Source: Chlorophyllum brunneum
Lineage: Eukaryota; Basidiomycota; Agaricomycetes; Agaricales; Agaricaceae
DNA length: 64,000 nucleotides
Direction: 5' to 3'
NCBI GenBank assembly: GCA_963576785.1
Contig: OY756143.1
Coordinates: 434,001 to 498,000 of the forward strand
Positions 1-33,221 of this stretch are shown here, piece after piece. Numbering within the stretch: the stretch's first letter is position 1; each line of letters opens with the position of its first letter. The notes below the pieces were generated by a model. It searched no databases. It saw nothing but the letters and a program-made list of their open reading frames with translations, and was not told the DNA's origin. Made by a program: the position numbers and the translations under genes.

Positions 1-2136
1 GAGTATTTCTTGGCGTAACTCGGCGTTTGGTGGTGCATATATTCTTCCTTCGAACATAGGTAATCCATCCATTTCCCATATCCCCTCTGGTCGTTTCTCC
101 TTTTCTTTTAGCCACTGTGTTTCTCTCCTTTGCTCCTTTCATAATCGGTATTTCAGATCCTCTTCTCCCGATATTTCCCAAATTTGTCTGATCTCGGTGA
201 TAGTGTTGTTGAATAAGTGGTCGGGTAATAGCGTGATATCTGTGTTATCTCTGGTGGTGTCCGTTTTTGCTAGTCTTGATAGCATGTCTGCTTTTGTGTT
301 TGTCTTTCCGGGTATGTGTTTTAGTGTGTAGCGATATTCTTGTAGTTCCAGTTGCCATCTTGCCTGTCGTCCTGTGAGTTGTTGTGGTTTCCTGAAGTAT
401 TCTAAGTTCTTGTGGTCCGTCCATATCTCGAATGGTTCATTGGCATTGAGTAGGTACTGTCTCCACGTTTTGACTGCTTCCCGGATTGCTAGTAGTTCTT
501 TGTCGTAGATTTGGTAGTTTCGTTCTGCCGGTATCATTGTTCTTGAGTGAAAGGCGATTGGGTGCCACTGATCATTCTGGTTTTGTGACAACACCGCTCC
601 TACTCCATATCCCGATGCGTCTACTTCTACCCTGTATTGTCCTTTGTCTTGAGGCATTGCTAGTACTGGTTCGCTCGTGATCTTTTCCTTGATCTTCTCA
701 AATGCCTGTTGTTGTCGTTCTGACCATGACCATTGCGCATCTTTCTTCTTCAGCTCGTGTAGGGGTGTTGCTATGTTACTGAAGTCTTGTATGAATCGTC
801 GGTAGAAGTTTGTGAAACCCAGGAATTTTTCGACGTCTTTTACGGATTTGGGTGTTGGCCATTCTTTTACTGCTTTCACCTTCTCTTCCTCCATTTTGAC
901 GCTGCCTTGTCTGACTATAAAGCCCAATATGGGTATTTCCTTCGTGTCGAACACACATTTTGATCGTTTGAAATAGAGTTGGTGCTTGGCTGCAATGTCT
1001 AAGAACCGCGTTGTTCTTTTCTCGAGTTCTTCCTGTGTGGTTCCTGGGATGACAAAATCGTCCATGTAGTTGACAAGCGATCCCTCATGTAACATTTCCT
1101 GAAATACTGTGTTCATCATCCTCTGGAAGGTTGCCGGTGAATTACTCATCCCAAAGAACATGACTGTAGGTTCGAATAACCTGCTGTTTGTTACAAATGC
1201 TGCCTTCCATTCATCCCCTTCTCTGATCCTGACGTTGTTATATCCCCAAATGATATCGAGCTTGTTGAATACCTTCGCGTCCTTTAACCGGTCTAGGACT
1301 TCGCCTATGAGTGGCAGTGGCGTCTTGTCTTTGATGGTGTGTTCATTCAGCTTTTTGTAATCCTGTACCAGGCGTTTTGTTCCGTCCTTCTTTGGTATGA
1401 AGAAGCGTGGGGTGGCGTAGGGGGATTGTGATGGTCTGATTCATCCTGAGGCAAGGTTTTCGTCGAGGAATTTCTGTAGTTCCTGCTTCTCCATTATTGT
1501 CATTGGGTAGACCTTGGACTGTAGTACCGGGGGTGCATCTTCGGATAGATTTATCTCGTGGTCCCATACCGTGTGTTCGGGTAGTTTGTCAAAGTTTTTC
1601 TTGTTGAATAGGTGGGTGTATCATCGGAGGTATGGTGGTAGATCTTCATTGTTCGTCTGGTCCGCCTTTTTCTCTTCAATGTGTTCTCTGATTGTCCGTA
1701 TTCTCTCGTTGAACCGTATGTCACTATGTGATATTTTGCAATCATCTGGGCATCTGGTGAATCGTATGACGTGATTGTTCCAATCGATCTCCGGGTTATG
1801 CTTGACCAGCCAGTCGTGTCCGAGATATAAGTCCGCACTTTCCAATTGTGTTACTAGAGCATCGATTTGTTCTGTATGGTTGCCGTTGTTTAATACCAGT
1901 TGTGCTTTGTCCGTTATTTCTCCTTTTTTGTTTTCTGTTCCGTCGGCATTGATTACCCTGATCGGGGTTTCCAGGGGTTTAGTCGGAATCTGTTCTTTGT
2001 CTACCATTCGTTGTGCTATGCACGTGTGGGTGCATCCGGAGTCTACAAGGGTTGTGATTTGTCTGCGTCCTTTTCTTGTCTGGATTGTTGAGTCGAGGAG
2101 AAGTTCGCGCGTGGAGTTTCGTTTCTGGGGGATCAT
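1..2136 (-). pseudogene. pol: Gypsy A pol: aspartic protease, RT, RNase H and start of integrase, with TGA breaks
   Basis: Reading from 2136 (Met-Ile-Pro-Gln-Lys) the frame encodes a retroviral-type aspartic protease with DSG in TLVDSGCTHTCI. It continues into a Ty3-type reverse transcriptase with the YMDD active site (about 1075) and RNase H (RVEVDASGYGVGAVLS, about 640-590). The frame stays constant but carries TGA codons at 1623-1621, 1443-1441 and 141-139. The first two fall where the related copy C has CGA, that is CpG to TpG changes. The third is shared with gypsy B and D. Upstream of the Met the same frame remains open into the end of gag. Confidence 0.9.
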
Positions 2137-2195
2137 GTATCGTCTTTTGTGGGCTAAAACAGAAACTCTAGATTTATTGGCTCGCGGGTTTGTGC

Positions 2196-3440
2196 CTACT
2201 CGGAGCCTTCGACAAATTCCTCTTTCTCCTCCATTTCTCGTTCATCTTCCTCGTTGATCTCTCTGATATGCGCTTTCTTGGGTGCCCGGCAGTTCTTCGA
2301 GATGTGGCCCTGTTTGCCACAATTGTAACACGTTATCTTGGTGTATGTGACTTTCGTCTTCTTCCTGCAGTATTTGGCAATATGCCCGTAGAGGTTGCAG
2401 TTGTAGCACCTCGGTTTCCCATTCTGATCGGTGTCTGCTTTTTGTCTTCCTATCTCCATGGGTTGTCCTCTACCTCCATAAGTAACTCCGGTGGTGGTTC
2501 TGACATCTCCTCGGGTGATGTCCGTTGCTTCATACCCTTGTCCTACTGCAAGGATTGTAGTTTTCCATTTGGTGTATGTTGTTGGGACAGAGGTTGTCGG
2601 GTAGCCTACTATGGTTCGGATGATGTCTGCTCGGGTGTGGCGTTTGAGGAGGAATATTGCGTGGGTGTCGTCTGTCCCCACTTGGGCTTTCAATACCTCG
2701 AATTCGATTAAGAAATCTGCCATGTTCTTCTTCCCTTGTTTGAACGTCTCAATTTCTCCTTCTGCTATGGCTTTCCTATTTCCCAAGGAAAATGTGGCTT
2801 CTATTTCCTTTGTAAAGTCATCCCAATCTGGTGTTTTCTTGTTCTGGATGGCTTGGAGTTGCGTGTTGGCGTAAGGGCCTGCTAGCCCCCCTTTCATTCT
2901 TGCCAAAATTGCTACTATTTTCTGTTCTTCTTCTTCTATCTTGTTGAACATCAGCCATAAGGATATGGCTCTCCACCAATCATCAAATCTGGTTCTATCC
3001 CCATTGAAATATCCTGGCTCCGGGGCTAGGTTTTTTGGGATGTTGACTTCTTCTGTCATTTCTGGTTCTGTTTCTGGTTCGCTGTGTTCGTTTGCGTGGG
3101 TCTCGGTGATTTCTCTATCAGCTGTGGCGTCGGCGACTTCTATGTCGATTTCTTCTTCAGATGCGGCTAGTTCCTCGTCTGTACTGTGTTCGGATTCTTT
3201 CTCGTAGGTCTCGACGATATCTATATCGGATGTGTTCTCAGCGACTTCTATGTCGAATTCGGTTTCGAATAGAGCTGTACTTTCGTCTACGCTGTGTTCG
3301 GATTTCTGCCGTTTAAGGCCTTCAGGGATTTCTGATTCTGTTGATCGTTTAGATCCTGTTGCTATAGGTGAACCCTGGATGTCTGTTGGTCTCAGAGCTC
3401 TGTGTCTTCTCGGTGTTCTCAATGAGCTACTGTTGCTCAT
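2196..3440 (-). CDS. gag: Gypsy A Gag nucleocapsid polyprotein, 414 aa, intact
   Basis: The protein has an acidic, low-complexity N-terminal third, then a retrotransposon Gag capsid region (about residues 140-300, including WWRAISLWLMFNK). Two C-terminal CCHC zinc knuckles follow: CYNCNLYGHIAKYC and CYNCGKQGHISKNC. By family knowledge, Gag assembles virus-like particles and binds the element RNA through the knuckles. The ATG is 94 nt inside the 5' LTR. The pol frame overlaps its 3' end in the -1 register. No stop codons are present although pol in the same copy is broken. Confidence 0.93.
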   Translation of the reverse strand: MSNSSSLRTPRRHRALRPTDIQGSPIATGSKRSTESEIPEGLKRQKSEHSVDESTALFETEFDIEVAENTSDIDIVETYEKESEHSTDEELAASEEEIDIEVADATADREITETHANEHSEPETEPEMTEEVNIPKNLAPEPGYFNGDRTRFDDWWRAISLWLMFNKIEEEEQKIVAILARMKGGLAGPYANTQLQAIQNKKTPDWDDFTKEIEATFSLGNRKAIAEGEIETFKQGKKNMADFLIEFEVLKAQVGTDDTHAIFLLKRHTRADIIRTIVGYPTTSVPTTYTKWKTTILAVGQGYEATDITRGDVRTTTGVTYGGRGQPMEIGRQKADTDQNGKPRCYNCNLYGHIAKYCRKKTKVTYTKITCYNCGKQGHISKNCRAPKKAHIREINEEDEREMEEKEEFVEGSE

Positions 3441-3520
3441 ATACTGTCGTCCTGGTCGGAGGCTATTATTCCAAGCCTAGCTACAAATAGTGGCACCTCT
3501 CTTGCAAGGTGAGTCGAATG

Positions 3521-3532
3521 ACACTTTACCAA
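3521..3532 (-). other. Gypsy A primer-binding site, complementary to its own LTR
   Basis: On the element strand the sequence is TTGGTAAAGTGT, starting 2 nt after the 5' LTR. It is the exact reverse complement of the LTR segment at 3617-3628, which lies downstream of the TATA box. This is the arrangement of self-primed Tf1/sushi elements, where the 5' end of the mRNA folds back to prime. Confidence 0.8.
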
Positions 3533-3533
3533 A

Positions 3534-3798
3534 TGTTACGACCTTAGTCTGAGACTCAGGTTGCAAGTCTTTGGATAAAGACAAGGAAGTAGAGAAGAGA
3601 GTAAGGGATGATACGATTGGTAAAGTGTAAGGAATACATCAAGTATTACTATACTTTATATACTAGTAGTGGCGGCTAATAATAAGGGAGATGAGTAGAC
3701 GAGTCAGATAGGAGGCATAGCCTTTAGAGATGAAACAGGAGATGGAACGAGGAGTGAAACAGGTGTGAGGGTACATGAGCTATCTATAGTTCATAACA
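3534..3798 (-). repeat. Gypsy A 5' LTR (265 bp, internally shortened)
   Basis: It is bounded by TGTTACG...CATAACA inverted ends and contains the TATATAAAG promoter block and the self-primer segment (3617-3628, plus-strand TTGGTAAAGTGT). Other LTRs of the family here are 293-294 bp. This one lacks about 29 bp in U3 between the GTACATGAG and CTATCTATAG positions near 3775-3781. Confidence 0.92.
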
Positions 3799-4673
3799 TG
3801 GGGTTTACCCTGGCGCTTCTTGGGCTTCTTCTTCTTCTTCTGGACGTTAATCCAGGTAGGAGTAGGAGGAGAAGGCTGAGGGGGCTGCCCACTCAGATTG
3901 GCAGGGTGGCGAGGACCTCTCGCAGGCTGGGCCCTGGTATTGCCTCCAGGGTGGAAGCGGTTCCAGGGTGGTCCAGGGCGAGTCCTGGGGATATTGCCCT
4001 GAGGGCGAGCTTGGTAGTTGGCAGTGGCGGCAAAAGAGGCTTGTGGGTTAGACATGTTAGGTCTTGACCCTTCACGTCTTGACCACTCAGCATTTATAGC
4101 CTGCTGAACTACCTCCCAGGTCATATCCACAACATCGTGATTATTCGCCAATGTTGTTTGTGCCACAGCATTCCAATCCGGTGGTAATGCGTTCAAAGCG
4201 ATCATCACGCCTAGAACTTCTGGCAATTTTACTTTAGCTGTTTCTAATTGAGAAGCCATTGTTCTCAATTCAGCTAGATCCATTGCTGGATCTTGATTCC
4301 CTGAAATGCGCTTTCGCAACATTCTTTGGAGAATTGAATACACCACGGCAGGAGAAGGTGTTCCAAAGCGGGTTTTCAAATCAGTCCAGAGGAATCCAGG
4401 AGCATCATGCCCATGGAGTAACAGGGAATCAGGTAAGGTACCATTAATAACAGCCAATGCCTGACCTCTCAATTGTTCTCTCCTTCTGTCTTCCTCCGTT
4501 AAGGTGGTAGGATTGGCAGGAGAGAGATCCTGGTCTGTCACAGTCCATCCAGACTGGTCAGAACCAGTGACAGAAATGAGGGTTAGGGCATCCTGAAGCC
4601 TTCTAGACCAGAATGCATAGTTCTTTGGCCCATTGAGCTTAGGTAAACCAGCGACGATATTATTAGTAGACAT
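3799..4673 (-). pseudogene. gag: Copia gag N-terminal part, truncated by gypsy insertion
   Basis: It starts MSTNNIVAGLPKLNGPKNYAFW, the Ty1/copia Gag (UBN2-like) signature, and is near identical to residues 1-290 of the complete copia polyprotein at 19,254. The frame is open to the gypsy LTR at 3798 and would read into it. There is a Pro/Arg-rich stretch and a KKKKKPKKRQGK basic patch near its end. No CCHC knuckle is visible in this family's Gag. Confidence 0.9.
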
Positions 4674-4820
4674 AATATCTTCGTCGAGTGTATTTCTTTC
4701 TAGAAGAAAATTCTCGTATCAGCAATGATCAAATACAAGGATAACTCTGTCAGGTGAAGCCCTATCATCCTATCTCAGTTAGAGGGGATGATAATGGTTT
4801 AACCATCGGTAAGGCTACCG

Positions 4821-19107: not shown

Positions 19108-19253
19108 GGTAGCCTTACCGATGGTTAAACCATTATCATCCCCTCTAACTGAGATAGGATGATAGGGCTTCACCTGACAGAGTTATCCTTGTATTTGATC
19201 ATTGCTGATACGAGAATTTTCTTCTAGAAAGAAATACACTCGACGAAGATATT

Positions 19254-22200
19254 ATGTCTACCAATAATATCGTCGCTGGTTTACCTAAGCTCAATGGGCC
19301 AAAGAACTATGCATTCTGGTCTAGAAGGCTTCAGGATGCCCTAACCCTCATTTCTGTCACTGGTTCTGACCAGTCTGGATGGACTGTGACAGACCAGGAT
19401 CTCTCTCCTGCCAATCCTACCACCTTAACGGAGGAAGACAGAAGGAGAGAACAATTGAGAGGTCAGGCATTGGCTGTTATTAATGGTACCTTACCTGATT
19501 CCCTGTTACTCCATGGGCATGATGCTCCTGGATTCCTCTGGACTGATTTGAAAACCCGCTTTGGAACACCTTCTCCTGCCGTGGTGTATTCAATTCTCCA
19601 AAGAATGTTGCGAAAGCGCATTTCAGGGAATCAAGATCCAGCAATGGATCTAGCTGAATTGAGAACAATGGCTTCTCAATTAGAAACAGCTAAAGTAAAA
19701 TTGCCAGAAGTTCTTGGCGCAATGATCGCTTTGAATGCATTACCACCGGATTGGAATGCAGTGGCCCAAACAACATTGGCGAATAATCACGATATTGTAG
19801 ATATGACCTGGGAGGTAGTTCAGCAGGCTATAAATGCGGAGTGGGCAAGACGTGAAGGGTCAAGACCCAACATGTCTAACCCCCAAGCCTCCTTTGCCGC
19901 AACTGCTAACTACCAGTCTCGCCCTCAGGGCAATATCCCCAGGACTCGCCCTGGACCACCCTGGAACCGCTTCCACCCTGGAGGCGATACCAGGGCCCAG
20001 CCTGCGAGAGGTCCTCGCCACCCTGCCAATCCAAGTGGGCAGCCACCTCAGCCTTCTCCCCCTTCTCCTACCTGGATTAACGTCCAAAAAAAGAAGAAGA
20101 AGCCCAAGAAGCGCCAGGGTAAACCCCAGGCCCACATGGCCGAAGCCATGGCGGGCTTTGCTACTGCCATGGAACCAGCGGTCCGTCGCTTCACTGGTCC
20201 GGGGATGACCCCCTTCGACCTGATGAGGCGCATGGACGTGCCTCGACCTGTTCCCGCTCCCGCTCCTCTGACCACTCATGTACTTGTGAGTGAGAGACCA
20301 AAACCGCTTACTTGGGTTAATCCCAAGAAGGTCCAGCAGGCACGAGAGAACGCTCGTGCTGAGCTCGAGAAAAAGGTGCGTGCTGAAGCTCGAAACTTAT
20401 GTTTCACCGCCCTCCTCGAAAACTCACTGCAGATCCAACAGGTGATCACCTGGCGCGACCGGGTCACTGGTCCTTCGCCTATACAAATGGCGAAGAAACG
20501 TGCTCTCGATCGATATGATCGAAGAATGCACGAGGTCTCTCACCCCCACGCCCCGAAAGGACGATCGGTGACACCGCCCAGTGCACCTTCGGTTCCTTCT
20601 GGTCACCCCCCAGGTTGTACCTGTGAGGGACACACGAGGGTAAGCAAATGGTTCACTAAACATAGTAACCCCGATATTAACGCGACCTGCGTCCGCTTCT
20701 CTTTTCTTTTACCCATTGGTTCGCCTTATGCCTTATTGATTTCTCCCAAATTTGGGAATAAACTCAATTTGGTAATACATCATGTGGTAAAGATCCCAAG
20801 CATGGACTCCGTCGCCCGGGGCGACTCACTTGAACCTGGAGAGGTTCGGCCATACTACCTTCCTCCTCCGGAGGAAATAGTAGCTCCGGCCGTTAGGACC
20901 TACGAAGAGGAGTTCCCTCCTCTTCCTCGGGCCTCCCCTCCTACGGAGCGCTTCCAGAGTAAGAGATTTTCTCTTACTCAGAAGAACAAGACCGCTAATA
21001 GGCGTCCTGCCACACTTACAGTGTTGGTAGACGAAGCCTTCAAATGGCTTGAGAGCGAGAAGGAGGTCGATGACCTCATGGCGCCGGCTCAGGATGTCGC
21101 CTACAACATCCGCGACCCCAGGAACCCTGCGAACGTCGCAGGACCCTCTTCTGGGCCTCTCCCCAAGTCTCCGAAGTCCGAACCTTTTGCTTCGGCACCT
21201 CAATCTGAGGTGTCACTCGGACTCTCATCGACAGACTACGGGAGTGACTTCAAAAAGAAGGGAGGAGCTGGGTATGTGATCAATTCAATCTCAGATACTC
21301 TTACTAACCCTGATACACAGTCCTGTCACCAATATGCCGACCGGCCGTCTTCGCAAGAAGAAGGGCAAGGGCAAGGGGAAAGGACGTCGGGGGCCGGGCA
21401 TATGACTACGCTATCGGGATCTATAGGATCCCATAATCATGTATTATCTGTGTGCGAATCAATAAATGAGAAGTGTTTTAACACTTCTCAATTTTCTTGT
21501 TTCTCCACGCGCATGCCTGATCAGTATTTAAGAGTACCAGATCAATTTAGATCTCGATCGCGAAGCAATGATCAAAGCATAACGCCACTAGAAGAATATA
21601 GTGACATATGGTTATTAGACTCAGGGGCATCATGTCATTATACCCCTTATGCGGAAGACTTCATCAACTTCGAAGAACTCGAAGTTTCGATCCCAATTAA
21701 GACTGTAGGAGCACAAAGCCCCTACCTTAATGCGGTTGGTCTTGGCGCAGTTATGCTTAAGCATAGAGTCTATAATGAGAAGACTGACAGCGTTCAACCA
21801 ACGCAGATATTAATATATCCAGTCTTCCTTTTGAAAGGAACCTCTGAACGACTAATGTCAGTGGGACAGTTATGCCAGGATGGCAAAACTGTTAGAACAG
21901 ATGCCAACGAATCAGTAGTAGTTGATAGCGAAGGAAATGCTATTCTTCAAGCATACCCTTCAGCAAGTCGCAACACTACTTTACATTTTGTTAATACAAA
22001 AATTGTACATTCGGAACAAGCAGCTATGACTGCACATCCGATCGTTGGCTACAAAGTTGTACATGCGAGATTAGGACATCCCTCTAATCGTATCCTCAAT
22101 CATTTTGAGAAAAATACGATTGGGTTTACTCCGGTGCGGATTCCCGAGCAAAAACCAGTCTGTGACGGTTGTGCCAAGGGAAAGATGCACCAGAAACCCT

Positions 22201-25200
22201 TTAGAGAAAACCCTACACGCGCAAAGCGTCCATTCGAAAGAATACACTCGGATTTAGTTGAACTTCCGATTCTTTCTTACCATAAATTTAAATGGGTCAT
22301 GACCATAATGGACAACTTTTCCTCTCATGGATGGATTCGCTTCCTCCATAAAAAATCAGAAGCAGCAGAAGAAATGAAAAATTTCATTGCCTTAATTCAG
22401 ACTCAATACGAGACTAAATTAAAAAATCTCTGCACTGATAGAGGAGGAGAGTATGCAACTGACAAGTTGCAATCTCATTTGCGATCATTAGGGATCAGAC
22501 ATGAGACCAGTGCACCGCACATACACCAACAAAATAGTCGAGCGGAACGCTTGAACCAAACTCTAATGGATAAAGCAGAAGCCATGCGGCATCATGCTTG
22601 TATTCCTGATGGTTGGTGGGAGTTTTCTATAGATCATGCGATACATATCTATAATAAAACACCGGTATCACGGCTCATGTGGAAAACACCTTATGAAGTG
22701 TTAAATCAGAAGATTCCAGATATCTCCAAAGAGAGAGTCTTTGGCTGCGGTGCTTATGTCTTTCTCCCAAAAGAGATAAGAGACAATAAACTGACAGCAA
22801 AGTCAGAACTCATGATTTTCCTTGGTTGGACATCAGACAGGAAAAATTATCGTTTCATGAGGCACCTAAATGGGAATGTAATCTATACATCTCCAACAGC
22901 CGTATTCAGTGAAGAACACTTCCCTAAATGTGTTGGGAAGAAGCGAGAAGAACGGATGAACCAACCATCATCTTCTACTTCTCGAAGTACACCTTCGGAA
23001 GTTATTGTCTTCCATGCTCCAGATCCATCTACTGGTTTACCTATTGATAAACCACCAAGCCCTATTCCCCGAACTTCTACCGGAAGTTCTCCGGAAGATA
23101 GGACTTATAGATCTGTACATGGACGAATTCCAACTCCTTTCCCTGAACCTAAAAAGAATAAAGGAAAGGGAAAAGCACCGAATATCGATACTGATGTTCA
23201 GGAGGAGTGGGATGGTATTGTGCAAAACATTCTCTTTCCACCAAGAGAAGCACAAATACCAGAAGACGATGACAGTGATGGATTATCATATGCTGATCCA
23301 CCTAATCACTCTGAAGGTCCGAACCATCCGCCTTCTCAAAGAGATGATCCGGATGTACAACCATTCATACCCTATACCCCTGTCGAAGATGATCGGGATG
23401 CTGGTCCTTCTATACCGTGAGGTCACTCGGATCAAATACCGGTTCCTGAAATACCTCAGAGACCGCAAAGAACCAGAAAAGTACCTGAACGTCCAGGAAA
23501 CTTGTATGGTTCTACAAAGCATCCGACCAAAATACTCCAGGACTATGAGATGTTCCAACCTCCTAAGTCGAAATTAACAAGTTCTACAAGTAGACTTGTT
23601 AGACAAATTCGATCAGAGGCTTCCAAACCTGGAATAATCGATAGACATTCTCAGCATGAAGCTTCTACATTAGAAGACTTATGCAGAGAAGGAGGAGTAG
23701 GGATGATCGATTATCTGTGCGCTCAAAAAGTCGAATCACCATTAGTTCCTATTTCTTTCAAGGTTCTAAATCGACTACCATCAGAAGAGAAATCTAAATG
23801 GTGGAAAGCGTGCTTAGAAGAGTTAAATTCACTCAAAGAAAGACATGTTTATGACTTAGCTAAACTTCCGCCTGGAAGAAAAGCTGTCAAAAATAGATGG
23901 GTCTTTACACCCAAATCAGACGGTCGATACCGTGCTCAACTAGTAGCAAAAGGATTCTCTCAGATAGAGGGAATCGATTACGATGAACTATTTTCACCAG
24001 TAGTCCGTTATGAGACAGCATGACTCATATTTGCAGTCGCTGCCCTCAACGATTGGGAGATGCTCAGTTTAGATGTTAAAACTGCTTATCTCTACGGAAA
24101 ACTGGATGAAGAACTCTATATGGAACTTCCAGAAGGTTTCAATACAGGTCGTGGTAATTTGGTTTGGAAATTAAACCGAGCCATTTATGGACTAAAGCAA
24201 TCTGGACGACAATGGTGGAAGGAATTGACTAAGTCAATGACCGACCTAGGATTTGTCCGATCCAAACTAGATGCTGGAGTCTATTATTACTACGACCCTG
24301 AAACCAAAGAGCTTATTATAGCTCTGGTCTATGTAGATGACTCAATGTTCGTCGGAATTAGAGGCTCTAGACTTCTATATGAGAAGTGAGCACTCTTTAT
24401 GAAGAAATGGGAATGCCGAGACCTTGGTCCAACCAAAGAGTTTCTTGGCATGAAAATTTCGCGAAATCCTATAAACCAATCAATCACCCTAGACCAAATG
24501 GATTATCTAGGAAAAGTACTTGATCGATTTAATGTAATTGGAAAAGAAGAAATTCCATTACCAAATGGATTCATCTTTGAATCCAATACAGGAAAAGCGA
24601 CACCTGACTTCATAAAGAGGTATCAACAATTAGTAGGATCGGTTATGTATCTGATGATAGGCAGTCGGCCCGACATAGCTTTCGCCACTGTCAAACTATC
24701 ACAACATATGACCAATCCAACTAAAGCGCATTACAATGCAGGCTTACATTTGCTAAAGTATCTTAATGCTACTCGCAAATATAGAATTACCTATAATGGA
24801 AGTTCTATGCAAGGCCTGAATGCCTTTTCCGACTCTGATTGGGCTGGTGATCCAATTAGTCGTAAATCTGTAACTGGATATTTCTGTTTATTAGCCAGCG
24901 GAGCTATCACTTGGTTAAGTAGGAAACAGAAAACTGTTGCATTATCTTCCACTGAAGCCGAATATATGGCTTTGTCAGATTGCAGTCGACAACTAGTTTG
25001 GACTGTCAATTTGTTAGAAGAAATTGGTATCCAATCATTGGCCCCTTATCTCTTCGGTGATAATGAGGGTTCAATATTTTGGGCCAAAAATCCAGTAACA
25101 GAAAAATGATCAAAACACGTCGACGTCAAATACCATTACATTCGTGATTTGATAGAAGACGGAAAGATTGAAATATTCTCTGTGAAAGGCACTGAAAATC

Positions 25201-25280
25201 CTGCCGATATTCTCACAAAGAATTTAGACAAGATTAAATTCAATCTATTCCGACCTCGCCTTAGCTTGACGTTTGAGTGA
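19254..25280 (+). pseudogene. gag-pol: Copia Gag-Pol polyprotein with four in-frame TGA codons
   Basis: A single reading frame of 2,009 codons. Gag is residues 1 to about 800 (UBN2-like start, basic patch, a CTCEGH region). The protease site is WLLDSGASCHY. The integrase has an HHCC pre-domain and a D-D-E core (HSDLVE, CTDRGGEY, AERLN). The RT has WVFTPKSDGRY and LVYVDDSMF. The C-terminal RNase H shows FSDSDWAGD, SSTEAEYMAL and ending LSLTFE. TGA codons interrupt at 23,418, 24,021, 24,387 and 25,107. At 24,021 and 25,107 the older copy has CAA; at 24,387 it has CGA. The 1,388 aa before the first TGA are open. Confidence 0.93.
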
Positions 25281-25300
25281 TTAAAACTCTATATCAATAC

Positions 25301-25314
25301 AGAGCAAGGAGGAG
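25301..25314 (+). other. Copia polypurine tract
   Basis: AGAGCAAGGAGGAG lies immediately before the 3' LTR; it is the expected plus-strand priming site. The older copy has the same tract before 26,575. Confidence 0.85.
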
Positions 25315-25887
25315 TGTTGAAGTTTCGGACATATTCTAGAAATAGATTATGAAGTCATTTATTCTAATAATAGACTGATCCGTTACTTTCCAGTAACTTC
25401 ATTCCGTAGTAACTTCCTATGAGTTGCTCTGCATACGATGAGAGTCATAAGTACTTGATAGATTATTCTACATAGTACCAATGACTAGATACTACGTTCC
25501 GCAGTACTCCGCAGACACTACGCCGCAGTTAAAAGGAGTCATAAGGAACAATCCATGCAATACTAGTATTTTATGTAGTATGACTCACACATGTCACAAT
25601 ATGTATATAAACCCCATGTAGCAGACCTAAGTTCTGCATCTTGTTCAATCGAACAACTTCTTCACCATTGCCTATCTCCTTGAGTACAACACCTCAACCA
25701 ATCTCATCGACTTTAGCCTCTATTCAACTGACGTTGATCGCTTTATCAATAATATCTGTCTATCCAAACTACCTTACTACAGGTATCAGATAGAAGCTTA
25801 TTATCTCGGTGAGTAGACCCTACGTTCTCTCCCACTGCGTTTACTGCTGCCCCCAGCAAACAACTCGTTACGGTCGTTTCCTCAACA
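25315..25887 (+). repeat. Younger copia 3' LTR
   Basis: 573 bp, about 99% identical to the 5' LTR. Confidence 0.95.
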
Positions 25888-28381: not shown

Positions 28382-30107
28382 CTACGCAAACAAGTGTTCA
28401 AACATGATGTGGTCATGCGCGGAAAGGATAGGAGCACCACCGCGCACATCAGCAGGATGCCCAAGTTTGGGATCTTTATCCTTAAACAGCGGATAGTTCA
28501 CCTCTCCATCGCGTCCCGCCCAGTCAAGGCCATGCAACATAAAGTCTCGCCCACCATCCTTCTTCACCAAAATGTTTGTCCTGCGAATATCCCCATGGAC
28601 CATCAACTCTTGGTGAAGACGAGTGACTGCATCGTGGATGGATGCTCTCAATCCCTCGCGCTGACACGATTCACCATCCAGGTAAACCCACGATTCGTCC
28701 AACTGTTCCATGACAACCATATACCACCCACCAGGAAGTTTGTCGAATGCAATCAGCTTTGGTGCAAAGCCGAGGTCGGCACACCGCGTATGAACGTCGT
28801 CTCCGTATCTCGGGACAAATTTAATGAAAATTGGCACCTGGTCATCGCCACGCCTGCCACTAAAAAGGAGTTTCTCGCCTTCCATCTGCCGATCGTACGA
28901 AAAAGCCACATTTGAGAGCAGGTTCTGGATAGGGTGAAATGTTCTTGGGTAGGGGGGAAAGAGGGAACTGGCGGACGTCAAGGAACGAGAGGGACGCGTC
29001 CCGACCGCATGGCCAGGGGACGCCAATGAACGGGCTTCCGCATCATTGGTATAACGTGTCACCAACGTATTCACTGCCTTTTTCAGAGCAGACAAGTGAC
29101 GAGCGAGTGCAGTAAATGTCTTTACATCAGTACTGTGGAATGCGAGGGGGAAAGCAGAAAACGTCTCCGTGGCGCTGCGGTCAGTCAGAGCGAAACCGCC
29201 AAAGGTGAGATGCGGTCCTAGATCTCAATTAGAGCAGCAGGAGCTAGGAGCGGGGACTGTATCTACCTTGGACGGTGATGATAAAGCAGGGATGATACGA
29301 AGAAACGTCCGCCCACAATTTCGGTACCCCACAAAAGGTATTGTAGTAGAGTAGACCTTCGAGCTCCGGGCTACCCTCGCCAATTTCATCCGTTCCCTCC
29401 AGAATAAGCACCGGGCGACCTTGGTAGGCAATATGAAAATGTAATGAACAACACTTTGGATCTAGGACCTTGGGGGTGAGATCGATGCCATATTTGTCGA
29501 GGATGTCGCAGAAGTCGTATCGGGTGAAGATGAAACCCACACATGTCCTCGCGCAACTCGCGAGCCGTTGCGTAGTCTTCAGCGACAAGGGGCTGGGCCT
29601 CACAGTCGTCAACAAATGTCCCGAACACAGGATCGGGTAGGGTGAAAGGAATGCCCTCTGGGCGTTGCTGTCATTTGGAATTCGGGGTGGTGACTGGGTT
29701 GGGTGAATGAGAACGCGAGTGGAATGAATCAGAAATGATAAACGGCGTGCCGCAAACTCACCATCCTCAGGGGGTTTAGTGATGACTTGCACGTGTCCGT
29801 TGGTAGGCGTGGTTCCTGTCTCTGGCTCAGACATGAAAAGCTCTGAGAGGATCCTGGTGCCGTGCAATGGGTTTTGTGCCTTAGATAGGTGCTCCTTAAC
29901 GTCCTCTTTGAGGCGTTCACCGTCAGGAATGGAAACCTGCCACAGATGGAGGGAGTCTGCGGCGACGTGATCAAAGGCGGGTTTCTTTTTCTCCTTGATC
30001 GCGTGCTTGAGGTCAGAAACAGAAGATGCCCTGTCGATTGTGACTTTGAAGACACAATCAAGGTCGTCGCCATGGACATAGCAGTACAGAGAGAGTGGCA
30101 TGGTCAT
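28382..30107 (-). pseudogene. Crinkler-type gene 1: single header, degenerate nuclease-like and kinase-like domains
   Basis: Exon 1 (30,107-29,762) encodes a Crinkler (CRN/CR) ubiquitin-like header, LYCYVHGDD...LWQVSIPDG. Its donor is GTGAGT at 29,761. The middle exon (to 29,267) encodes the PD-(D/E)xK-like domain but contains a one-base frameshift near 29,542, and its acceptor is uncertain (an in-frame TGA follows the most obvious site). A 49-nt intron (29,266-29,218) leads to the kinase exon (29,217-28,382), with HGDIRRTNIL. The nuclease motif reads LEGTDE instead of the neighbour's LEGKNE. The kinase metal-binding DFD reads GLD. Loss of both catalytic residues plus the frameshift argues for a dead copy; sequencing error at the frameshift is not excluded. 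Confidence 0.8.
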
Positions 30108-30281: not shown

Positions 30282-33221
30282 CTACGCAAACAATTTTTGA
30301 AACATGATGTCGTCGTGCATGGAACGGATAGGAGCACAATCACTGACATCAGCAGGGCGCATAAGCATGGGGTTTTTGTTTACAAATGGCGGATACTTGA
30401 CCGCTCCGTCGCGTCCTGCCCAGTCAAAGTCAAGCAGCATAAATTCTCGTCCGCCATCCTTCTTCACCAAAACGTTTGTCCTGCGAATATCCCCATGGAC
30501 CATCCCCTCTTGGTGAAGACGGGTGACAGCATCGTGGATAGATTCTCTCATTCCCTCGCGCTGACACGATTCATCGTCCAGGTAAACCCACGATTCATCC
30601 AACCGTTCTATGACAACCATATACCATCCGCCAGGAAGCTGGTCATATGCAATCAGCTTTGGTGCAAAACCGAGGCCTGCACACCAGCTATGAACCCCGT
30701 CTCCGTATCCCCGAACAAATTTGATGCAAATTGCCTTCCGGTCATCGCCGTACCATCCGCTAAAAAGTAAAGCCCTGCCCTCCATCGGCTTGTCATACGA
30801 AAATGCTACAGCTGAGGGTTGGGTTGAGGATCGGTCAGGCAGGGGATGAAATTCGGTTGGGTGGGGGGGTAAGACAGATAGGTCCGGATTAATGGAAGAC
30901 TTGACCCCGTCACCAGGGGGAGCCTTCTCATAGCGAGTGGTCAACGTATTCATTGCTTTCTTCAGAGCTGATAAATGACGGGCGAGCGCGGCATATGCTT
31001 CTAGAGAGAATTCGTGAAACATGAGGGGGAGGAATGAAAACATTTCCATTGTGGGCCGATCACTCAGAGCGCAACCGCCAAAGCCCAGATGGGGTCCTAG
31101 ATCTCAATCAATACAGCAAAGGCTGAAAATGAGGATAAGACCTACCAGCCAGAACGATGGCAAAGCAAGGATGACACGAAGATTTATCTCTCCACACATT
31201 GCCTGATTTACATAAAGCATTGTAATAAAGTAGGGCTTGGAGGGTAGGTTCCGCCGTTCCCTGACTAATTTCATTTTTACCCTCCAGAATGATCACCGGG
31301 TGATCCCCCTTGAGAAGATGACCATCGGTCAAGAACTGTGTTGCACCAACGCCCCTAGAGTGGAGCTTAATCCCATATTTTTCCAGTACTTCGTGGAATG
31401 CAAGTAAACGAGACGCTTCTTTATTATAAAACTGACACATCGCCTGTTGCAACTCCGAAGCGGCGAAGTAGTCCTCAGCACCGACGGGACTCTGCTTGCA
31501 GTCGTCGAGAAATTTGCCAAACACAGGATCGAGCAAGGTCAAAGGAATTGAATGCTTCCGTTTCGGAGGGCGGCAGCAGGCAAAGAACAGGTGGTCATCG
31601 CGTTGTATCTTCTCGAATTCCTCGGCTTTGCCCCACGTTGAAGGGGCGCGATTGGGTCCGTCTTGAAAAAGTTCTCGTCGCATTTCCATATATGTGGGTG
31701 GCAGTGGTTCCGAAGGAGTGGTGACTAGATGAGAACGTGAGTGGAATGTCGGCTACGAAACGGAAATGAGAAGCGGCGAGCGGTAGACTCACCAGCCTGA
31801 GTACCAGCCTGAGGGGGCTTAACGATGATTTGCACGTGTCCCTTCGTAGGCTCATGTGGGAAGAGTTCCTTCACGGTCGTTGTTGCGAGAGTTAAGGCAA
31901 CCTTGTCACCATCGAACGCGTCTACCGCCTCTTCGAGAACTTCGCTCACGGGAAGGGAAACCTGGCAGAGCTTGAGGGTGTTTGCATCGATATGATTAAA
32001 GGCGTGTTTCTTTTCCTCCTTGATGGCTTTCTTGAGGTCGCCAACAGAAGCCTGCCGTCCCACCGTGACAAGAAAGGTGGAATTATCGCCTTGGACGTAG
32101 CATAAGAGAGAGACTAGACAAGTCAGTGGAAATGCGCGGAATGACGGAGGCGTAAAACTCACTCTCCGGACGTTCTATGACGATACTTATGGTTCCTTTC
32201 TTTGGGTCACGCTTGAAGAGATCGGAGAGATTCCTACCACTCCGTAATGGGTTTCGTGCGTTGGACAACTCCTCTTCAACGTCTTCTTTGAGGTCGTCAC
32301 TATCGGGAATGGAAACCTGCCAGAGCTCGAGGGTGTCTGCATCGATATGATTAAAAGCGTGTTTCTTTTCCTCCTTGATGGCTTTCTTGAGGTCGCCAAC
32401 AGAAGCCTGCCGTCCCACTTTGACAGGAAAGGTGGAATTATCGCCTTGGACGTAGCATAAGAGAGAGACTAGACAAGTCAGTGGACATGCTCGGAATAAC
32501 GGGGGCGTAAAACTCACTCTCTGGACTGTTCTGTGGACATTCTATGACGATACTTATGGTTCCTTTCTTTGGGTCACGCTTGAAGAGATCGGAGAGATTC
32601 CTACCACTCCGTAATGGGTTTCGTGCGTTGGACAACTCCTCTTCAACGTCTTCTTTGAGGTCGTCACTATCGGGAATGGAAACCTGCCAGAGCTCGAGGC
32701 TTTTTGCAGCAATGTGATCAAACTCGGGCTTCTGTTCCTCCTTGATGGCTTTCTTGAGGTCGCCAACAGAAGCCTGCCGTCCCACTTTGACAGGAAAGGT
32801 GGAATTATCGCCTTGGACGTAGCATAAGAGAGAGACTAGACAAGTCAGTGGACATGCTCGGAATAACGGGGGCGTAAAACTCACTGTCTGGACTGTTCTG
32901 TGGACATTCTATGACGATACTTATGGTTTCTTCCCCTGGGTCAGACTTGAAAATCTGAGAGAGCTTCCGGCTACTCTGTAATGGTTTCCGTCCCTTGGAC
33001 AGCTCCTCTTCAACATCCTCTTCGAGACCTTCGCTATCGGGAATGGAAACCTGCCAGAGCTCGAGGGTGTCTGCATCGATATGATTAAAAGCGTGTTTCT
33101 TTTCCTCCTTGATGGCTTTCTTGAGGGTGGCGATATTACATGTCTTGTCAATTTCGACTTCGAAGACACGGTTGGCATCATCACCGCGGACATAGCACAA
33201 AAGAGAGAGTGGGCTTGACAT
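30282..33221 (-). CDS. Crinkler-type gene 2: four tandem ubiquitin-like header domains, nuclease-like and kinase-like domains (891 aa, 6 exons)
   Basis: Exon model: 33,221-32,885; 32,835-32,518; 32,468-32,163; 32,113-31,793; 31,724-31,146; 31,096-30,282. The total is 2,676 nt, in frame, and every junction is phase 1. Introns are 49, 49, 49, 68 and 49 nt with GTGAGT or GTAGGT donors and CTAG acceptors. Exons 1-4 each encode a Crinkler N-terminal header (LLCYVQGDN...VGDLKKAIKEE...LWQVSIPD). Residues about 428-640 are PD-(D/E)xK-like with IILEGKNEI and a following QALLYY, then HPCFAIVLAGPHLGFGG across the last junction. The C-terminus is kinase-like with HGDIRRTN and LLDFDWAG. By family knowledge, CR-REase-kinase proteins act as secreted or intracellular effectors; no signal peptide is visible. 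The function here is inferred only from domains. Confidence 0.85.
32114..32835 (-). repeat. Tandemly duplicated exon-intron units inside Crinkler gene 2
   Basis: Units of 367 bp (32,835-32,469) and 355 bp (32,468-32,114) each hold one header exon plus its 49-nt intron. Introns 32,884-32,836 and 32,517-32,469 look identical; the third differs at about five positions. Exon 4 (32,113-31,793) starts with the same sequence and then diverges. Confidence 0.9.

What the first reader, a model, noticed from the sequence alone, without database searches (positions are those of the whole stretch)
30282..33221. Crinkler gene with four tandem ubiquitin-like header domains
Seen: four consecutive exons each encode a complete Crinkler header. 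All splice junctions are phase 1 and the six-exon model gives a continuous 892-codon frame ending in a nuclease-like (LEGKNE) and a kinase-like (HGDIRRTN, DFD) domain. Known: Crinkler (CR/CRN) proteins normally carry one N-terminal header. Inference: the product is a header concatemer, analogous in layout to polyubiquitin, which could change trafficking, processing or avidity.
Basis: partly seen in the sequence, partly recalled or inferred. Interest (0 to 1): 0.87.

Follow-up and report, generated by a model that had tools for sequence, protein, structure and literature searches.

The report
Crinkler gene with copy-variable header array
A gene of the Crinkler effector/toxin family carries four copies in a row of its ubiquitin-like front domain, each on its own exon, and sister genes in the same genome carry three or five copies in front of practically the same back end, so the number of front domains can change while the reading frame stays intact.

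Summary
Four consecutive exons (E1-E4, window 33221-31793, minus strand) each score 73.6-89.0 bits against PF20147 (cut-off 24.6). All five junctions are phase 1 with GTGAGT/GTAGGT donors and TAG acceptors; the six exons sum to 892 codons including the stop. E2-E4 have no Met in the exon or in the open frame before it, so they are not separate AUG-started genes. The new fact is genomic. The same gene recurs with 3 headers (C5:236 kb) and 5 headers (C7:343 kb) before an identical nuclease-like exon (579/579 nt) and a kinase-like exon differing at 1 of 815 nt. A diverged paralogue has 4, a broken copy 2, a distant paralogue 2. First and last headers form fixed classes; middle ones vary in number, and two chimaeric headers show exchange between units. 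The units are frame-neutral. A polyubiquitin-like layout is right; polyubiquitin-like cleavage is not supported (no Gly-Gly). The modelled header (E3) is ubiquitin-like (pLDDT 89.4). Expression, splicing and function are untested, and other species could not be surveyed adequately.

The parts
32885..33221 (-). Exon 1: start codon (33221-33219) and header 1 (class F, first)
   Evidence: PF20147 85.8 bits; only Met of the four header exons; GTGAGT donor; phase 1 out
32836..32884 (-). Intron 1, 49 nt
   Evidence: GTGAGT...CTGAC...TAG, one of 13 alike
32518..32835 (-). Exon 2: header 2 (class M, middle)
   Evidence: PF20147 87.0 bits; no Met in exon or in open frame upstream; 318 nt, phase 1-1
32469..32517 (-). 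Intron 2, 49 nt, identical to intron 1
32163..32468 (-). Exon 3: header 3 (class M); modelled, ubiquitin-like fold
   Evidence: PF20147 89.0 bits; pLDDT 89.4, pTM 0.81; ubiquitin/RAD23/ISG15 matches
32114..32162 (-). Intron 3, 49 nt
31793..32113 (-). Exon 4: header 4 (class L, last), with HVQIIVKPP near its end
   Evidence: PF20147 73.6 bits; identity to the C12 four-header gene falls from 97% to 88%, 65% and 53% around and after this motif
31725..31792 (-). Intron 4, 68 nt
   Evidence: GTGAGT donor, ATCTAG acceptor; 68/68 in the C5:236 kb and C7 copies
31146..31724 (-). Exon 5: nuclease-like domain with LEGKNE
   Evidence: 579/579 nt in two other copies; both Glu of LEGKNE among invariant columns of 5 paralogues, the Lys not; no Pfam hit
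31097..31145 (-). Intron 5, 49 nt
   Evidence: GTAGGT donor, ATCTAG acceptor
30282..31096 (-). Exon 6: kinase-like domain (HGDIRRTN, DFD) and stop
   Evidence: Pfam Kdo/WaaY/APH at or over cut-off; aligned in 5 paralogues
28382..30107 (-). Adjacent single-header Crinkler paralogue: first ATG 30107-30105, header about 30092-29760, nuclease-like part in two frames meeting near 29512 (disrupted, or an unrecognised intron), kinase-like exon 29215-28382
   Evidence: LEGTDE in place of LEGKNE and HGLD in place of LDFD
23300..25887 (.). Dispersed repeat downstream of the gene pair (context; the query ended at 23300, so it may be longer)
   Evidence: 39 other genome places at 96-98% over all or nearly all of this stretch; 40 of 596 candidates scored

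Best explanation
An intact-looking Crinkler (CR) gene whose front part has become an array of exchangeable exons. Each middle unit is a phase 1-1 exon holding one complete ubiquitin-like header, followed by a near-identical 49-nt intron. Because both ends of a unit have the same phase, units can be gained, lost or swapped by unequal crossing-over or conversion without breaking the frame. That has given sister genes with header series F-M(n)-L, n = 1, 2 or 3, in front of practically constant nuclease-like and kinase-like domains (and n = 0 in a broken copy). Gene anatomy and copy-number difference are shown from sequence; splicing as modelled is inferred. The likely effect is a string of four ubiquitin-like beads (about 5-9 residues between the strands of neighbours) that makes the N-terminus multivalent for whatever a single header binds (a trafficking or scaffold partner, or other headers), while the C-terminal enzyme acts on its target. 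That functional step is inference (about 0.35).
For: Four PF20147 hits in four consecutive open phase-1 exons. No Met in E2-E4 or in the open frame before them. Copies with 3, 4 and 5 headers share E5 at 579/579 nt and E6 at 814/815 nt. 13 of 13 header introns keep length and splice signals. Position classes with chimaeras: S3 (C7 gene) is middle/last-type at its 5' end (48/48 nt to the last class in the first block) and identical to that gene's first header over its last 159 aligned nt; U1 (broken copy) is first-type at 5' and middle-type at 3'. Polymorphic sites shared between classes: F-M 11, F-L 1, M-L 11 with U1 left out; M-L falls to 2 if U2 is left out too (with U1 counted in F: 22, 8, 11). 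pN/pS pooled over 15 distinct headers is 0.66; 17 of 18 exons are stop-free. Between the window and C12 four-header genes the header part is 90-100% alike per 60 nt up to 31869, while bins after the HVQIIV motif range 53-98%, mostly 53-90%. The header model has strands at residues 2-6 and 92-98 of 100, so linkers are short. A distant paralogue (C9; kinase-like part 31% identical) also shows two headers in a row, the second without an upstream start Met.
Against: No RNA evidence. pN/pS of 0.5-0.7 is weak constraint; bootstrap intervals of recent header pairs include 1, W4-T4 is 1.09, and E5 window vs C12 is 0.68 (0.44-1.05). Shared polymorphism between classes shrinks when the broken copy's headers are left out. 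The gene sits in repeated, mobile-element-like DNA, and one sister copy is broken. Nothing shows that header number matters. No second species could be examined: the protein search with one header gave 9 hits of 110-160 aa, a second with a single-header frame gave none, and scans of viral and prokaryote contigs gave none.
Confidence: 0.6

Rival explanations
1. Neutral array drift: header number changes by unequal exchange like a minisatellite and is tolerated because units are frame-neutral and each header folds on its own; one header would do.
For: 3, 4 and 5 headers before practically identical enzyme-like domains; no clear positive selection in headers (per-class pN/pS by segment 0.34-0.63, one segment 1.12).
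Against: Multi-header state also in the diverged C12 gene and, as inferred, the distant C9 gene; first and last classes are kept.
Confidence: 0.3
2. Alternative-splicing cassette: since E2, E3 and E4 are each phase 1-1, transcripts with any subset stay in frame, so the gene makes a mixture of header numbers; intron retention would add 26 codons and stop.
For: Symmetric exons; 13 of 13 retained-intron readings end at the same place.
Against: Introns 1 and 2 are identical and the signals canonical, with no sign of weak sites; the 26-codon readings follow simply from exon conservation.
Confidence: 0.13
3. Recognition array comparable to the WD40 arrays of Podospora HET-D/HET-E: repeat exchange within and between paralogues feeds changing binding specificities in a fungal conflict or self/non-self system.
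For: Chimaeric units and number differences among paralogues, the pattern described for HNWD genes (PMC1805685 and PMC12222747, passages); Crinkler domains also reported at N-termini of fungal NLRs (PMC9815663, section 10 and passages).
Against: No diversifying signal except a weak 1.12 in the 3' part of the last class; no allelic data.
Confidence: 0.1
4. Decaying, unexpressed copies in repeat-rich DNA; open frames only reflect recency of duplication.
For: Repeat neighbourhood; broken sister copy with TAG in header 2 and a split kinase-like exon; the neighbouring single-header gene has its nuclease-like part in two frames in the window copy.
Against: Open exons and canonical splice sites in the 3-, 4- and 5-header copies; kinase-like exon window vs C12 w 0.57, bootstrap 0.39-0.82.
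Confidence: 0.15
5. Assembly artefact (false tandem expansion).
For: Units 2 and 3 are 95% identical; WD40 arrays of this kind were unreliable in short-read assemblies (PMC12222747, passages); read type of this assembly unknown.
Against: Units differ (W2 vs W3 by 15 nt); five arrays at four places with differing flanks; the remote C9 gene shows the same layout.
Confidence: 0.04

Closest known systems
Crinkler (CR/CRN) proteins with REase-like plus kinase C-terminus
   Same: PF20147 header(s) in front of a nuclease-like and a kinase-like part; HV..IV motif at the header/effector boundary, near which paralogue identity drops. PMC5289972 describes HVLVXXP as a recombination hot spot and REase-kinase as about one-sixth of C-termini (passages).
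   Different: Four (elsewhere 2, 3, 5) headers on separate exons; the HV motif is only in the last header.
Polyubiquitin genes
   Same: Head-to-tail string of ubiquitin-like units with variable number.
   Different: No Gly-Gly ends; units are separate exons; a large enzyme-like part follows; unit sequence depends on position. Polyubiquitin features are recalled.
Podospora HNWD (het-d/het-e) WD40 arrays
   Same: Exchange within and between paralogues with changing repeat number (PMC1805685, passages).
   Different: The repeat is a ubiquitin-like domain at the N-terminus, not WD40 behind a NACHT; no diversifying selection found.
RAD23 Ubl / ISG15
   Different: 16% and 26% identity; no functional link shown.

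Membership tests
Crinkler (CR/CRN) protein | N-terminal Crinkler header (PF20147) over cut-off | tested here: met
   E1-E4 at 73.6-89.0 bits against 24.6
Crinkler (CR/CRN) protein | Header has a ubiquitin-like fold | tested here: met
Crinkler (CR/CRN) protein | HVLVXXP-like motif ends the header region and marks a recombination point | tested here: met
   HVQIIVKPP near the end of E4; identity between the window and C12 genes drops around and after it; one gene pair only
Crinkler (CR/CRN) protein | A single header | tested here: not met
   Four headers; hence filed as a variant
Crinkler (CR/CRN) protein | Known CR effector domain (REase-like) | tested here: inconclusive
   E-x-K in LEGKNE, both Glu invariant in 5 paralogues; no Pfam or PDB sequence match; fold model pLDDT 39, unusable
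Crinkler (CR/CRN) protein | Known CR effector domain (kinase) | tested here: met
   Kdo, WaaY and APH at or over their cut-offs; PF00069 below its cut-off; HGD, N and DFD kept
Crinkler (CR/CRN) protein | Secretion and entry into another organism's cells | not testable with these tools
   No experiment; no signal-peptide tool
Polyubiquitin | Gly-Gly at each repeat end, cleaved to monomers | tested here: not met
   Junctions RPE-I, CPQNSPE-I, CPQNSPD-I in the listed copies
HNWD-like recognition array | Repeat exchange within and between paralogues with number change | tested here: met
HNWD-like recognition array | Diversifying selection at interaction positions | tested here: not met
   pN/pS below 1 in all segments but one (1.12); coarse test, few sequences, no per-site model
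HNWD-like recognition array | NACHT/WD40 architecture | tested here: not met
   no such Pfam hit in the six exons

The most novel reading that the evidence does not exclude
A two-gene conflict module: a multi-header enzyme-like CR protein whose header number and mix are changed by frame-neutral exon exchange, next to a single-header paralogue with altered key residues (E-x-K reads E-x-T in the three copies seen; the first Asp of DFD is Gly in the four copies seen) but a kinase-like exon still under constraint (w 0.30-0.37 in the five better-diverged pairs), acting as partner, decoy or antidote through header-header pairing.
Probability: 0.12. Interest if true: 0.85.

Novelty: new variant of a known kind. 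Interest (0 to 1): 0.62.

Why it matters
Headers are a poorly understood part of a widespread effector/toxin family. A natural series of 3, 4 and 5 headers in front of practically the same enzyme-like domains, in one genome, turns 'what does the header do?' into a dose question that a laboratory can test. It is also a clear case of exon-number change that keeps the reading frame because of how the unit is built.

Tried and rejected
Separate genes for each header: rejected, no Met in E2-E4 or in the open frame before them. Ubiquitin-like self-processing: no Gly-Gly. Diversifying selection: not seen. Survey of other organisms: protein search with E3 gave 9 hits of 13 candidates, all 110-160 aa, because the tool admits only proteins of similar length; E5 gave 1 of 52 candidates, a 100%-identical protein without a named source, apparently the window's own frame; a 341-aa frame of a single-header paralogue with its header as region gave none of 21 candidates; viral contigs 0 of 59 stretches and prokaryote contigs 0 of 263. 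So absence elsewhere is not shown. Fold of E5 from one sequence: pLDDT 39, discarded, not searched. Papers: ten searches; several lists were capped (20 of 75, 12 of 304, 10 of 273, 10 of 390 shown). I saw titles and the start of abstracts, plus passages of PMC5289972, PMC6131194, PMC9815663 (and its section 10), PMC1805685 and PMC12222747; nothing seen describes a multi-header CR gene. The main paper on CR headers (doi 10.1093/nar/gkw221) is not held and may describe such cases. Rows and letters dropped or off: the codon with the in-frame stop (U2) was skipped in the codon comparisons; T4 was cut by hand and carries about five nt past its donor; the C8:42 kb, C8:51 kb and C9 headers were left out of the codon comparisons; one search used 15 distinct headers of 18; U1, itself a chimaera, was counted in class F, which raised shared sites, and one search gives the counts without it.

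Full report
WHAT IS THERE. On the minus strand of the window, 33221-30282, there are six exons with canonical boundaries. All five junctions are phase 1 and the lengths 337+318+306+321+579+815 sum to 2676 nt, 892 codons with the stop. Each of the first four exons encodes a complete Crinkler header (PF20147, 85.8, 87.0, 89.0 and 73.6 bits; cut-off 24.6). E5 has the LEGKNE motif and no Pfam match. E6 is kinase-like (Kdo, WaaY and APH at or above their cut-offs; PF00069 below). E2-E4 have no methionine and none in the open frame upstream back to a stop, so they are not independent AUG-started genes.

THE SAME GENE WITH OTHER HEADER NUMBERS. The window lies at C5:434001-498000 of a 38.9-Mb genome in 14 contigs. 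PF20147 gives 28 matches there. I group them by position: this gene (4) and its single-header neighbour (1); C5:236-239 kb (3 and 1); C7:343-347 kb (5 and 1); C12:1930-1931 kb (4); C12:1933-1935 kb (2 and 1); C7:61 kb (1); C9:340-341 kb (2); C8:51 kb (1); C8:42 kb (2 partial). Leaving C8:42 kb aside, 6 of 12 genes are multi-header. The 3-, 4- and 5-header copies share intron 4 (68/68), E5 (579/579 nt) and E6 (814/815 nt); the 2 kb upstream is 93.6% alike in C7, and in the fetched C5:236 kb stretch only the last 167 bp of it is found (97.0%). The C12 four-header gene is an older relative: E5 79.6% and E6 81.3% alike in DNA. The C12 two-header copy is broken: a TAG in header 2 and a kinase-like exon split over two frames. 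The C9 gene is remote (kinase-like part 31%) yet has two headers in a row with no Met in the open frame before the second; that they form one gene is inferred. C8:42 kb is a decayed locus, with eight stops in its kinase-like match.

HOW THE NUMBER CHANGES. The 18 header exons of the five close copies fall into first (F), middle (M) and last (L) kinds by position and similarity. Middle numbers are 2 (window), 1 (C5:236), 3 (C7, one of them chimaeric), 2 (C12 four-header) and 0 (broken). In the C7 gene S2 and S4 are identical; S3 between them matches the last class 48/48 in its first block, then the middle class, and is identical to that gene's first header over its last 159 aligned nt. U1 is first-type at 5' and middle-type at 3'. 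Leaving U1 out, F and M share 11 polymorphic sites and differ fixedly at 50 (34 of them in the first 108 nt); F and L share 1; M and L share 11, or 2 without U2; no class pair has a fixed difference in the central block (columns 109-162). The chimaeras are the clearest marks of exchange between units; the shared sites lean partly on the broken copy. All 13 header-to-header introns are 49 nt with GTGAGT, CT[AG]AC and TAG; 10 of 49 sites vary, none in the donor or TAG, and the one in the branch-like motif (label recalled) keeps the consensus. The junction DNA search returned 13 places, the same ones. Between the window and C12 four-header genes, identity is 90-100% per 60 nt through E3 and most of E4, 88% at 31868-31810, then 65% and 53%. 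The header array and the enzyme part thus have different histories, with the change near the kind of motif where CRN genes are reported to recombine (PMC5289972, passages).

SELECTION. pN/pS pooled over 15 distinct headers is 0.66 (0.656 over all 18). By class it is M 0.56, F 0.50, L 0.72, with one segment (3' part of L) at 1.12. Deeper pairs exclude 1 (W1-W3 w 0.45, 0.26-0.80; W1-W2 0.46, 0.25-0.83; W1-T1 0.37, 0.18-0.76); W3-W4 (0.65, 0.42-1.04) and the recent pairs do not, and W4-T4 is 1.09. Kinase-like exon window vs C12: 0.57 (0.39-0.82). E5 window vs C12: 0.68 (0.44-1.05). So there is moderate constraint and no clear diversifying signal; exchange between units makes these values rough.

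THE NEIGHBOUR. Beside the window, C5:236, C7 and C12:1933 arrays stands a single-header paralogue. LEGKNE reads LEGTDE or LEGTNE in the three copies I looked at (window; C12 and C7:61 kb). DFD reads GLD or GFD in four of four kinase-like exons of this kind examined (window, C12, C7:347 kb, C7:61 kb). The window and C12 multi-header genes keep DFD and C9 has DFE. The kinase-like exon of these paralogues has w 0.30-0.37 in five comparisons and 0.12 in one with 7 differences. Against this, their nuclease-like part shows no constraint (0.87, 0.42-2.07) and their headers give 0.58-1.19 on few differences. In the window copy the nuclease-like part lies in two frames, and the C5:236 kb copy is cut short. 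A constrained partner without full catalysis is possible; some copies are damaged.

HOW IT MOST LIKELY WORKS. Shown: gene anatomy, number series, exchange. Inferred: splicing of all headers into one product; a bead string that raises avidity for the header's partner; an enzyme-like part that acts as proposed for REase-kinase CR proteins, the REase being seen as the toxic part and the kinase as its regulator (PMC5289972, passages). Not supported: release of headers by cleavage. Whether the protein leaves the fungus is open. In Rhizophagus most CRN-like proteins lack a signal peptide (PMC6131194, passages), and Crinkler domains occur at fungal NLR N-termini (PMC9815663, section 10), so an internal role is as possible as export.

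NOVELTY. Ten literature searches (several lists capped) showed no paper that, from title, abstract start or the passages I read, reports multi-header CR genes; the main classification paper was not held. I call it a new variant of a known kind. After the recount of shared sites I lowered confidence from 0.62 to 0.60 and the novel case from 0.13 to 0.12.

Noticed in passing
window 28382-30107: Single-header paralogue beside the array has LEGTDE for LEGKNE and HGLD for LDFD; the kinase-like exon of this kind is constrained between copies (w 0.30-0.37 in five pairs), its nuclease-like part is not (0.87).
   Followed up: partly
window 29274-29670: Nuclease-like part of the single-header paralogue lies in two frames that meet near 29512, whereas the C12:1936 kb, C7:347 kb and C7:61 kb copies match in one frame.
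   Followed up: partly
window 23300-25887: Dispersed repeat found at 39 other genome places at 96-98% identity (40 of 596 candidates scored); a 1403-codon open frame lies at 19209-23417 and several other frames look like mobile-element proteins by eye (no family search).
   Followed up: no
L032 (C9:337-345 kb), 2031-4443 minus strand: A remote Crinkler locus (kinase-like part 31% identical) with two headers in a row, the second without a Met in the open frame before it.
   Followed up: partly
L033 (C8:40-46 kb), about 2480-4780: Decayed Crinkler locus with two partial header matches and eight stops in its kinase-like match.
   Followed up: partly
G000:C5:23-112 kb, C4:85 kb: Six places with open frames of 279-292 codons 32-40% identical to part of the kinase-like exon and no PF20147 match near them.
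   Followed up: no
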